Shown piece after piece: positions 24,753 to 26,993 of a stretch of 59,106 bases of DNA. The notes under the pieces are model-generated. The model was given only the letters and a program-made list of their open reading frames with translations, was not told the origin of the DNA and did not search any database. The translations under genes were made by a program, and so were the position numbers. The stretch lies in contig LVAK01000020.1 of assembly GCA_001604035.1 (NCBI GenBank), positions 1 to 59,106 of the forward strand. Direction: 5' to 3'. The stretch is from Clostridiales bacterium Firm_05. Its GTDB lineage: Bacteria; Bacillota; Clostridia; Oscillospirales; Ruminococcaceae. The stretch's first letter is position 1; each line of letters begins with the position of its first letter.

Positions 24753-26333
24753 TTACTTCTTGAGGAGTCTGTTCTGGATACCGAGGGCGTCCATAGGAGT
24801 GATGCCGTCGCCGGTGTTGGCTACGTCGGAGTTGAACTCGCCCCATGTAGTGAGCTGGTACTTGTCAGGGTTGGATATAGTCTGCATAATGAGAACAGCG
24901 TCGTTCATCTTCATCTGGTTGTCGCCGTCAGCATCGCCGGAACGCTCTATAGTTTTGCCGCTGAAAGCTTCGAGGTACTTGATCTGATTAACGGTTGCAA
25001 CTGCTTCCTTGTCTGCTGCCTGAGCCTCGCTGTCTGAGCTGAATGCATCAAGAAGGGCATTGAGGTCAACTGAATCATCATTTGTATACTTTGTTATGAT
25101 AGCTTCAGCTATCTGAAGGTCGAGGATATCACCGCTTACGCCGTCATTGTTAAGATCGAATTCATTATCAAGGTGATCCCATATATCGGGAGCAAGACTT
25201 ATGCTTGTAGTAGCATCATTTCCTCTTTCGAGATCGGATGCAAAATCTAATATTGTTTTATAGTCGTCCATGTCGCATGAACCGTCAAGGTTGGCATCAG
25301 GAGGAGCAACTGTACCGCTGAGCATTTTAGCTTCAAAATCAGCGATCGCTTCATCAAGCTCATCCTGATAATCCGCATCGAACTGCCTGTCAAGCTTGTA
25401 TGAATGGCTTGTAACAGTTGCAAGGTCGGCTTCAAGAGCAGCTTCCTTTATATTTGAAGAGAATGCAGCGGGCAATGCTTTAAGTGACTTGCCCATATCC
25501 TTCTTTTCGGCTGCTGTAAGGCTGGTCTGGCTGATGAGCTGATTGAAATAATCGTAGTAGTTATTATAATTCAGGACATCTGCATCAAATGGAGTGTTGA
25601 ATATGTAGTATCTTACAAGTGTCTCGTCGCTTCTGTTGTCGAAGAAGTTCTTTTCGTGATATTCATTGCACTTATCCCATGTTATGCTGCTTATCGGTAC
25701 GAGCTTCTTTGCTGCGGAGTCGTTGAACGGACTTTCATAGCTGCTGTAGGTGTACATCTGATACTCAAACAGGTCATATATGTCAGCCTTGCCGTCACAG
25801 TTGAAATCAAGGTCGATATTTTCATTTTTTATAAGATCAGAGGCATACTTGTAAAGATAGTTGTCTGAAAAAGCAAGGGTCTTTAAATGATCTACAAAAT
25901 AGAAGCTTGTGAGGGTGACATTGCCGTTTGTATCAGGGTAGTTATAGATATCCAGATCCTCAGGATCAACACCGTTCTTGTAGAGATAATATCTGGTAAA
26001 ATATAAGAGGTCATTCATACGGATCATGTAATCCTGATCGATATCTCCTCTTTCTGCTATGAGCTCAAGGTCAGAATCAGATACAAGGCGGCTTCCCTCC
26101 GGGAGGTAATCAACTCTGCGGATGACATATGACCATAATGCTGCGATATCATAGCGGTCGAAAACGCCGTCATTATTTATATCGGGCGAAACTGTGCCGT
26201 CTTCCAGGGCTGGAAATATATACTCTGACATATAATGGTCGACTGTTGGCGGCTCGTAAGCAGCCTGAGTTCCTGTAGGTATAACGTTCATAAGTGTTGC
26301 AGCGGCTGCTGCTGAAGCTAAAAACTTTTTCAT
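24753..26333 (-). CDS. Putative internal in-frame start: secreted multi-EF-hand/dockerin protein (526 aa)
   Basis: GAAAGGAG-TATTGTT-ATG (SD 7 nt from ATG), then MKKFLASAAAAATLMNVIPTGTQA-AYEPP, a signal peptide with TQA|A cleavage site. Confidence 0.6.
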   Translation of the reverse strand: MKKFLASAAAAATLMNVIPTGTQAAYEPPTVDHYMSEYIFPALEDGTVSPDINNDGVFDRYDIAALWSYVIRRVDYLPEGSRLVSDSDLELIAERGDIDQDYMIRMNDLLYFTRYYLYKNGVDPEDLDIYNYPDTNGNVTLTSFYFVDHLKTLAFSDNYLYKYASDLIKNENIDLDFNCDGKADIYDLFEYQMYTYSSYESPFNDSAAKKLVPISSITWDKCNEYHEKNFFDNRSDETLVRYYIFNTPFDADVLNYNNYYDYFNQLISQTSLTAAEKKDMGKSLKALPAAFSSNIKEAALEADLATVTSHSYKLDRQFDADYQDELDEAIADFEAKMLSGTVAPPDANLDGSCDMDDYKTILDFASDLERGNDATTSISLAPDIWDHLDNEFDLNNDGVSGDILDLQIAEAIITKYTNDDSVDLNALLDAFSSDSEAQAADKEAVATVNQIKYLEAFSGKTIERSGDADGDNQMKMNDAVLIMQTISNPDKYQLTTWGEFNSDVANTGDGITPMDALGIQNRLLKK

Positions 26334-26993
26334 AACAATACTCCTTTCATAATCAGCGGTCTGTTCATCCAGTTCGCTGTGAGGTTTATCGGGCGGAACT
26401 GTGACCTCTGGCACATGGGGAAGGATATGTGCCGAAGTTACAGTAGTGACTGCTGCCTGAACAGATGTGCGTGCAGTTGTCACTGTGACTTTTGGTGTCT
26501 GAGCAGGCTTTCCTGACGGGCGGGTATAGGTACTGCCGCCGCCATTAACGGTATTGTTTCCGTTACCATTGATAACTTCCGCAGACGTTATCGGTGTTTC
26601 TGATCCTGCTGTAGTAGTCACGGTATATTTTATATCTGTACCCGGGGCAGTTGTCCGGACAATGCCGCCTGGTACTTCAGTCACCCCTGTGGAATCCTCG
26701 GTAGCTGTAATGATGTTTCCGGTATCGCTGTTTTTTGGTTCAAGCTTAGGAGTAGACTTAACGCCGGTCCATATGCAGACAGCCGCTGCAGCAGCAGTCA
26801 ATGCAGAAATGGCCATCCAGCCTATCTTTCTATGCTTTTTCTCAGCTTTTTCTTCCGGTACAGCGGTCAGCTTCTCCATTTTCTCTTTGAAGCTGTCGGA
26901 AAAATCATAATCGGGGATATCCAGACCGGTCATTTCTTCATAACTCTCGTTTAGTATCTCTTCAAGAGCATCTTTAAGAATATCCTTACTCAT
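24753..26993 (-). CDS. Anti-sigma-like membrane N-terminus fused in frame to multi-EF-hand/dockerin secreted protein
   Basis: ATGA overlap with ECF sigma stop; TM IGWMAISALTAAAAAVCIWTGV; Ser/Thr-rich linker; DINNDGVFDRYDI, DIDQDYMIRMNDL, DFNCDGKADIYDL, DANLDGSCDMDDY, DLNNDGVSGDILDL, DADGDNQMKMNDAVLIMQTI, DVANTGDGITPMDALGIQ. Confidence 0.78.
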   Translation of the reverse strand: MSKDILKDALEEILNESYEEMTGLDIPDYDFSDSFKEKMEKLTAVPEEKAEKKHRKIGWMAISALTAAAAAVCIWTGVKSTPKLEPKNSDTGNIITATEDSTGVTEVPGGIVRTTAPGTDIKYTVTTTAGSETPITSAEVINGNGNNTVNGGGSTYTRPSGKPAQTPKVTVTTARTSVQAAVTTVTSAHILPHVPEVTVPPDKPHSELDEQTADYERSIVMKKFLASAAAAATLMNVIPTGTQAAYEPPTVDHYMSEYIFPALEDGTVSPDINNDGVFDRYDIAALWSYVIRRVDYLPEGSRLVSDSDLELIAERGDIDQDYMIRMNDLLYFTRYYLYKNGVDPEDLDIYNYPDTNGNVTLTSFYFVDHLKTLAFSDNYLYKYASDLIKNENIDLDFNCDGKADIYDLFEYQMYTYSSYESPFNDSAAKKLVPISSITWDKCNEYHEKNFFDNRSDETLVRYYIFNTPFDADVLNYNNYYDYFNQLISQTSLTAAEKKDMGKSLKALPAAFSSNIKEAALEADLATVTSHSYKLDRQFDADYQDELDEAIADFEAKMLSGTVAPPDANLDGSCDMDDYKTILDFASDLERGNDATTSISLAPDIWDHLDNEFDLNNDGVSGDILDLQIAEAIITKYTNDDSVDLNALLDAFSSDSEAQAADKEAVATVNQIKYLEAFSGKTIERSGDADGDNQMKMNDAVLIMQTISNPDKYQLTTWGEFNSDVANTGDGITPMDALGIQNRLLKK

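What the first reader, a model, noticed from the sequence alone, without database searches (positions are those of the whole stretch)
24753..26993. Gene within a gene at an ECF-sigma locus: one ORF for an anti-sigma-like membrane protein and a secreted dockerin protein
The ORF downstream of (and ATGA-overlapping) an ECF sigma gene starts with a short cytosolic region, one TM and a Ser/Thr-rich linker, an anti-sigma/sensor layout. With no stop codon it continues into a secreted-protein module. At the junction the DNA reads TAT-GAA-AGG-AGT-ATT-GTT-ATG-AAA-AAG: a good Shine-Dalgarno (AAAGGAG) 7 nt before an in-frame ATG (codon 221, position 26333) that opens a textbook signal peptide. Predicted products are a 745-746 aa membrane form and a 526 aa secreted form. 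Inference: the dockerin/EF-hand part could report cohesin, scaffoldin or Ca2+ status to the sigma factor, analogous in concept to the C. thermocellum RsgI/SigI sensors but with a dockerin ectodomain and dual translation.
Basis: partly seen in the sequence, partly recalled or inferred. Interest (0 to 1): 0.88.

Follow-up and report, generated by a model that had tools for sequence, protein, structure and literature searches.

The report
Membrane sensor gene hiding secreted twin
Cellulose-digesting gut bacteria of the genus Ruminococcus carry dozens of related genes that appear to encode both a membrane protein likely to control a gene-switching factor and, from a second start signal inside the same gene, a free secreted copy of its outer part; no such arrangement was found in the papers searched.

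Summary
The 746-aa ORF (24753-26993, -) follows an ECF sigma gene and runs without a stop from a short cytosolic tail and one TM through a Ser/Thr linker into an internal SD (AAAGGAG, 26341-26347), ATG (26333) and signal peptide, then a helical ectodomain ending in an R. flavefaciens group 1 dockerin. The window holds a second copy (36085-38632, +). In one genus, 89 such loci in 47 genomes (67 clusters at 70% identity) share the layout; none of the 89 has a stop at the junction. The SD is selected as nucleotides: anti-SD energy is -8.0 kcal/mol against -3.65 in synonymous shuffles and -2.0 at 1284 other in-frame ATGs, and it persists in amino-acid registers ERS, EGS, EGG, EEG, EEV, RRV and QGG. 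About 16 of 89 have a weak or lost SD but keep the ORF. Linker dN/dS is mostly below 1, so the fusion is probably translated. Ectodomains have been swapped near the internal start. Best reading: one gene makes a membrane anti-sigma receptor and its secreted twin. Translation of both, sigma binding and the signal sensed are untested. It is not RsgI/SigI by sequence, but probably does a comparable job.

The parts
26990..27514 (-). ECF sigma factor gene (sigma A), 174 aa
   Evidence: Sigma70_r2 and Sigma70_r4_2 over Pfam cut-off; orthologue 87% identical in G025
27556..27584 (-). Predicted autoregulatory ECF promoter TGTCCAAA-N15-CGTTAT
   Evidence: Same element and spacing upstream of related sigma genes; 9 of 85 against 0.02 in shuffles
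27592..27609 (-). Direct repeat GTTTACA-N4-GTTCACA upstream of the promoter
   Evidence: Relaxed form in 27 of 85 family upstream regions against 0.08 in shuffles; 7 hits in the whole genome, 0 in the reversed control
24753..26993 (-). Fused ORF: full-length membrane form, 746 aa
   Evidence: no stop at the junction in 89 family members
26760..26828 (-). Transmembrane segment 1 (about residues 56-78)
   Evidence: Hydropathy; helix 52-79 in a low-confidence part of the AlphaFold2 model
26349..26756 (-). Ser/Thr-rich linker (about residues 80-215)
   Evidence: Family linkers average 32% S+T against 11% in ectodomains; disordered in the model; dN/dS 0.64 against the nearest orthologue
26341..26347 (-). 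Internal Shine-Dalgarno AAAGGAG within codons Glu-Arg-Ser
   Evidence: dG -8.5 against -2.5 synonymous null, p 0.017 for this locus; family-wide test
24753..26333 (-). Nested gene: predicted secreted form, 526 aa including signal peptide
   Evidence: ATG at 26333, 7 nt after the SD; layout conserved
26259..26333 (-). Internal signal peptide MKKFLASAAAAATLMNVIPTGTQAA
   Evidence: M-K-K invariant in the 10-member alignment
24768..24941 (-). C-terminal group 1 dockerin (residues 685-742)
   Evidence: PDB 5M2O chain B E 1.8e-11; Foldseek 5m2s/5m2o prob 1.00; VxIMQxxxNP signature of group 1 (PMC2930009)
36052..36079 (+). Predicted ECF promoter of second copy, TGCACAT-N15-CGTCAA
   Evidence: Conserved at related loci, 6 of 85 against 0 in shuffles
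36026..36043 (+). Direct repeat GTTCACA-N4-GTTTACA before the second sigma
36085..36609 (+). Second ECF sigma gene (sigma B); GTG at 36103 may be the true start
   Evidence: Sigma70_r2 and r4 over cut-off
36569..38632 (+). Second fused ORF, 687 aa, same layout with dockerin
   Evidence: Dockerin_1 39.5 bits
37125..37131 (+). Internal Shine-Dalgarno AAAGGAG of the second copy; ATG at 37139

Best explanation
The gene is one of a large Ruminococcus family of ECF sigma / membrane anti-sigma operons in which the receptor gene also encodes its own soluble twin. Translation from the first start gives a type II membrane protein: a cytosolic tail (presumed sigma-holding), TM, an extracellular Ser/Thr linker and an ectodomain ending in a cellulosomal group 1 dockerin. 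Translation from the conserved internal SD and ATG gives the same ectodomain with its own Sec signal peptide, secreted free of the anti-sigma part. Because ectodomain and dockerin are shared, the secreted copy should reach the same partner (cohesins of ScaA/ScaB or another ligand). It would either join the cellulosome as a structural subunit or compete with the membrane copy, so that the sigma factor responds to partner occupancy. Shown by sequence: the ORFs, SD, signal peptide, dockerin class, operon and conservation. Inferred: that both forms are made, that the tail binds sigma, that sigma drives its own operon, and what is sensed. The confidence given is for the two-product receptor; the occupancy idea alone is about 0.3.
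For: 89 loci in 47 genomes of one genus have a sigma gene immediately upstream plus the internal signal segment in frame, 160-302 codons into the open frame. SD dG averages -8.0, against -3.65 for synonymous shuffles and -2.0 for 1284 other in-frame ATGs; it is <= -7 in 81% against 2.9%. By 70%-identity clusters: 57 of 67 at <= -7, Wilcoxon p 4e-12. 49 of 51 Glu-Arg-Ser sites use AGG for Arg (22% usage overall) and all use AGT or AGC for Ser (38% overall). The SD persists in other amino-acid registers (L200). 79 of 89 end in a dockerin; at least 4 of the other 10 are cut by the end of the fetched sequence. In 12 related pairs, linker dN/dS was 0.26-0.79 in 11 (one pair 2.03 on very few changes); ectodomains gave 0.09-0.32 in the 11 pairs where it was computable. 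All 19 standalone secreted homologues have no sigma upstream. Isolate genomes carry it: XPD3002, Y1, ND2009.
Against: No translation or proteomic data. About 16 of 89 loci, in several lineages, have a weak or lost SD yet keep the frame, so the second start is not universal. The signal peptide cleavage motif is also less frequent there, which fits joint loss. The low mRNA structure at the internal ATG is explained by base composition alone. The cytosolic tail matches no known anti-sigma domain.
Confidence: 0.68

Rival explanations
1. Only the full-length membrane sensor is functional. The internal SD and signal peptide are leftovers of an old fusion between an anti-sigma gene and a downstream secreted-protein gene.
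For: About 16 of 89 loci have lost or weakened the SD but none lost the open frame. Standalone secreted homologues with their own SD and signal peptide exist, so a fusion origin is plausible. Ectodomains are exchanged near this seam.
Against: Relics would decay. Instead the SD holds at AGG and AGT/AGC codons against synonymous drift in proteins as little as 19-30% identical over the junction region, and in new amino-acid registers.
Confidence: 0.17
2. Two ordinary translationally coupled genes: a short anti-sigma whose frame happens to run open into the next gene. The fused protein is incidental.
For: The internal start has a normal RBS as strong as those of standalone homologues (-8.1 kcal/mol).
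Against: No stop at the junction in 89 loci and always in frame; no split version with sigma upstream was found. The linker is S/T-rich (32%) and its dN/dS is mostly below 1.
Confidence: 0.08
3. The second hydrophobic segment is a second TM helix of a two-TM anti-sigma, and the SD-like codons are protein-driven.
For: The hydrophobic segment is kept even where the SD is lost.
Against: It would put the linker outside and the dockerin in the cytosol. Its N-flank is K/K, the wrong polarity for an out-to-in helix, and it is less hydrophobic than TM1 in 86 of 89. It does not explain codon choice at the SD.
Confidence: 0.05

Closest known systems
RsgI/SigI biomass-sensing anti-sigma systems of Clostridium (Acetivibrio) thermocellum
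   Same: Several paralogous sigma plus membrane anti-sigma pairs per genome in a cellulosome producer; autoregulation (here predicted); cellulosome-related extracellular part
   Different: ECF sigma with region 4 instead of SigI; no RsgI N-terminal domain found; ectodomain is helical with a dockerin rather than a carbohydrate-binding module; internal start encoding a secreted twin. A 2024 survey (PMC11557425) states that only Acetivibrio-type cellulosome producers use a dedicated RsgI suite.
Classical ECF sigma / single-TM anti-sigma operons (SigW, SigM and similar)
   Same: Gene order, overlapping start and stop, one TM, group-specific promoter before the sigma gene
   Different: No recognisable anti-sigma domain; large modular extracellular part; nested secreted gene
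Internal in-frame translation products in prokaryotes (Cas11b, PMC11899642; SpaO short form, PMC13059759; abstracts only)
   Same: One ORF, internal in-frame start, C-terminal product
   Different: Here the internal start opens a signal peptide, so the two products should differ in location (membrane against secreted), and it recurs across a family of dozens of loci
R. flavefaciens group 1 dockerin proteins (PMC2930009, PMC5429695)
   Same: C-terminal group 1 dockerin predicted to bind ScaA and ScaB cohesins
   Different: Attached to an anti-sigma-like membrane protein rather than to an enzyme

Membership tests
ECF sigma / anti-sigma operon | Sigma factor with regions 2 and 4 only | tested here: met
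   Pfam r2 and r4 over cut-off for both window sigmas
ECF sigma / anti-sigma operon | Cognate membrane protein overlapping or directly downstream | tested here: met
   89 loci; ATGA overlap in the window
ECF sigma / anti-sigma operon | Recognised anti-sigma domain in the cytosolic tail | tested here: not met
   No Pfam match in four tail types; tails are short
ECF sigma / anti-sigma operon | Autoregulatory promoter matching the sigma group | tested here: inconclusive
   Group-specific elements with conserved spacing precede the sigma genes; that the sigma uses them is untested
ECF sigma / anti-sigma operon | Direct binding and inhibition of the sigma | not testable with these tools
   Needs two-hybrid or pull-down
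RsgI/SigI | SigI-type sigma: region 2 with SigI C-terminal domain and no region 4 (PMC6056542) | tested here: not met
   Region 4 present
RsgI/SigI | RsgI N-terminal domain | tested here: not met
   No Pfam match
RsgI/SigI | Polysaccharide-sensing ectodomain such as a CBM | tested here: not met
   No such Pfam domain in the ectodomain
R. flavefaciens group 1 dockerin | Signature VxIMQxxxNP and ALxIQKxxL (PMC2930009) | tested here: met
   VLIMQTISNP exact; ALGIQNRLL differs at one residue; 5M2O chain B match
R. flavefaciens group 1 dockerin | Binding to ScaA/ScaB cohesins | not testable with these tools
   Needs a binding assay
Internal in-frame start (nested gene) | SD conserved beyond amino-acid constraint | tested here: met
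Internal in-frame start (nested gene) | Initiation or product detected in vivo | not testable with these tools
   Needs Ribo-seq or N-terminomics

The most novel reading that the evidence does not exclude
A bacterial counterpart of soluble receptors: a whole family of sigma-controlling membrane receptors, each encoding a secreted copy of its own ectodomain by internal translation. Both copies carry a cellulosomal dockerin, so the cell can compare cohesin occupancy at its surface with secreted supply. Ectodomains are exchanged between sigma / anti-sigma stems near the internal start, which retunes what each sigma factor listens to.
Probability: 0.3. Interest if true: 0.92.

Novelty: new variant of a known kind. 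Interest (0 to 1): 0.82.

Why it matters
How Ruminococcus adjusts its cellulosome seems open; a dedicated RsgI suite is reported only for Acetivibrio-type producers (PMC11557425). This family, with up to six copies found in one genome, is a concrete candidate for the missing regulators. It also offers a family-wide case of apparently programmed internal initiation that yields a membrane and a secreted form of one receptor, testable with one Ribo-seq or secretome experiment in sequenced isolates.

Tried and rejected
Assembly artefact or lost stop: rejected, since the layout recurs in 89 loci including isolate genomes. Chance open frame: rejected. SD as a by-product of the protein sequence: rejected by synonymous shuffles, though single-locus p-values are modest (49 of 89 below 0.05). 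mRNA accessibility as extra evidence: not independent of base composition. Pfam and PDB searches for the anti-sigma tail and ectodomain core: only the dockerin is recognised. Same architecture outside the genus: a 400-genome sample of the family gave only EF-hand/dockerin-level matches there; the three non-genus places read (L202, L204, L212) are not of this layout. A composite promoter pattern in nine genomes gave one hit; its fixed spacing does not even match the known site in the window, so that search is uninformative. A first mRNA/promoter script failed and was rerun. The open literature held no description of this layout.

Full report
WHAT IS THERE. On the minus strand the window carries an ECF sigma gene (26990-27514; Sigma70 r2 and r4) whose stop overlaps the start of a 746-aa ORF (24753-26993). 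The ORF begins with about 55 cytosolic residues, one TM and a Ser/Thr-rich linker. At Tyr-Glu-Arg-Ser-Ile-Val-Met-Lys-Lys it reads through an SD (AAAGGAG, 26341-26347) and, 7 nt on, an ATG (26333, codon 221) that opens a signal peptide. The remaining ectodomain is predicted all-helical with fair to good confidence (block pLDDT 61-92 over residues 251-660; the tail, TM and linker are mostly below 50). It ends in a dockerin: residues 685-742 match PDB 5M2O chain B at E 1.8e-11, Foldseek ranks the same two R. flavefaciens entries first, and the VxIMQxxxNP signature of group 1 dockerins is present (PMC2930009). Group 1 dockerins bind ScaA and ScaB cohesins (PMC5429695). The same window holds a second, divergent copy: sigma 36085-36609 and ORF 36569-38632, with the same SD and an internal ATG at 37139.

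HOW WIDESPREAD. A profile of the junction and ectodomain (A1) matched 64 of 126 genomes of the genus. About a hundred places were fetched and scanned: 113 EF-hand/dockerin ORFs, of which 89, from 47 genomes, have an ECF sigma immediately upstream and an in-frame internal signal segment 160-302 codons into the open frame. Nineteen further homologues are plain secreted proteins with an N-terminal signal peptide; none has a sigma upstream. Up to six fused loci were found in one genome, the window's own; this is a lower bound. Named records include R. flavefaciens XPD3002, Y1 and ND2009. A 400-genome sample of the family gave no convincing case outside the genus.

IS THE INTERNAL START SELECTED. 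For each locus the internal ATG was chosen by the signal segment alone, and the binding energy of the preceding bases to the anti-SD was compared with synonymous recodings of the same residues. Means are -8.0 observed, -3.65 recoded and -2.0 at 1284 other in-frame ATGs; standalone homologues average -8.1. After clustering at 70% identity, 57 of 67 clusters are at or below -7 (Wilcoxon p 4e-12, Fisher p 1e-27; these treat clusters as independent, which is only approximate). Of 51 Glu-Arg-Ser junctions, 49 use AGG for Arg (22% overall) and all use AGT or AGC for Ser (38% overall). Most telling, the SD survives where the residues differ: EGS, EGG, EEG, EEV, RRV, and QGG in L200. Spacing from the motif to the ATG is 7 nt in 53 loci. 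As a control, among 229 other long ORFs only one unexplained case appears. Seventeen loci fall short of -7; one of these (L164) is a wrongly picked ATG, leaving about 16. Their frame remains open, and the cleavage motif is rarer in the seventeen (9 of 17 against 59 of 72, p 0.02; related loci are not independent).

IS THE FUSION TRANSLATED. None of the 89 loci has a stop at the junction and none of the other ORFs read is a split gene behind a sigma. Linkers have 32% Ser+Thr against 11% in ectodomains. In 12 related pairs the linker dN/dS is 0.26-0.79 in 11 and 2.03 in one pair with very few changes; ectodomains are 0.09-0.32 in the 11 pairs where it could be computed; the cytosolic tail and TM are 0-0.21 with two outliers. 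So both halves look translated and the linker is a relaxed spacer.

MODULAR EXCHANGE. L126 and L118 are 90-100% identical at DNA level up to the internal ATG and fall to about 40% within 60-120 nt after it. L117 and L137 have 95% identical N-termini but 30% ectodomains; the window's first ectodomain is 48-49% identical to ectodomains behind unrelated tails in L052 and L092, whose sigmas are of the sigma-B type. In the second window copy against L094 the change of identity lies about 180 nt after the ATG. Ectodomains are thus exchanged near the internal start.

PROMOTERS. Sigma genes are preceded by group-specific ECF-like elements with conserved spacing, for example TGTCCAAA-N15-CGTTAT and TGCACAT-N15-CGTCAA in the window. 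A direct repeat of the type TTYAYA-N5-TTYAYA precedes 27 of 85 (0.08 in shuffles). In the window's genome the related 18-base pattern has 7 hits and 0 in the control; two of them, with GCACAT and CGTTA elements, lie before a dockerin-serpin and a secreted protein whose frame appears to include a dockerin. This suggests a small cellulosome-related regulon for sigma B; it is a lead, not a test.

MECHANISM AND LIMITS. The best reading is one gene, two products: a tethered receptor that holds the sigma factor and a secreted twin with the same ectodomain and dockerin. The receptor form is the more constrained of the two, since frames are always kept while the SD is sometimes lost. Competition for the same cohesin or ligand is my preferred function for the twin, at about 0.3; incorporation into the cellulosome as a structural or signalling subunit is the main alternative. 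Sigma binding, both initiation events and the signal are untested.

COMPARISON. It works like RsgI/SigI but fails its sequence tests. Internal in-frame starts are known in bacteria and archaea, but no case of this arrangement turned up in the open literature searched; subscription journals are mostly missing from that library.

Noticed in passing
27592-27609 (-) and 36026-36043 (+): Direct repeat GTTYACA-N4-GTTYACA (PhoP-box-like, TTYACA-N5-TTYACA) upstream of both sigma genes; a third site at 4047-4064 (+) precedes a 121-aa gene that is not a sigma.
   Followed up: partly
L232 (G000:C73) and L231 (G000:C52): A sigma-B-like promoter with the same direct repeat stands before a dockerin-serpin and a secreted dockerin protein elsewhere in the genome: candidate regulon members.
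   Followed up: partly
L126 against L118; L117 against L137; window 36569-38632 against L052: Near-identical or similar sigma/anti-sigma stems carry very different ectodomains, with the switch near the internal signal peptide in the pair mapped.
   Followed up: partly
L190 (G087:C157): The closest orthologue of the window gene's N-terminal half, in this MAG, has a frameshift about 100 codons after the internal start, splitting the ORF; assembly error or real cannot be told.
   Followed up: partly
L135, L140, L145, L138, L170, L143, L151, L152, L153, L155, L154, L173, L113, L057: Family members with a weak or lost internal SD that keep the fused ORF and the hydrophobic segment; why the segment is kept is unexplained.
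   Followed up: partly
27748-31050 (+): Divergently transcribed from the sigma gene: a secreted BspA-type leucine-rich-repeat protein with a weak dockerin match; a similar neighbour lies at the G025 locus (L052).
   Followed up: no
5652-8729 (+): A serine recombinase and an ArdC-like/ImmA-like gene suggest a small mobile element near the window start.
   Followed up: no
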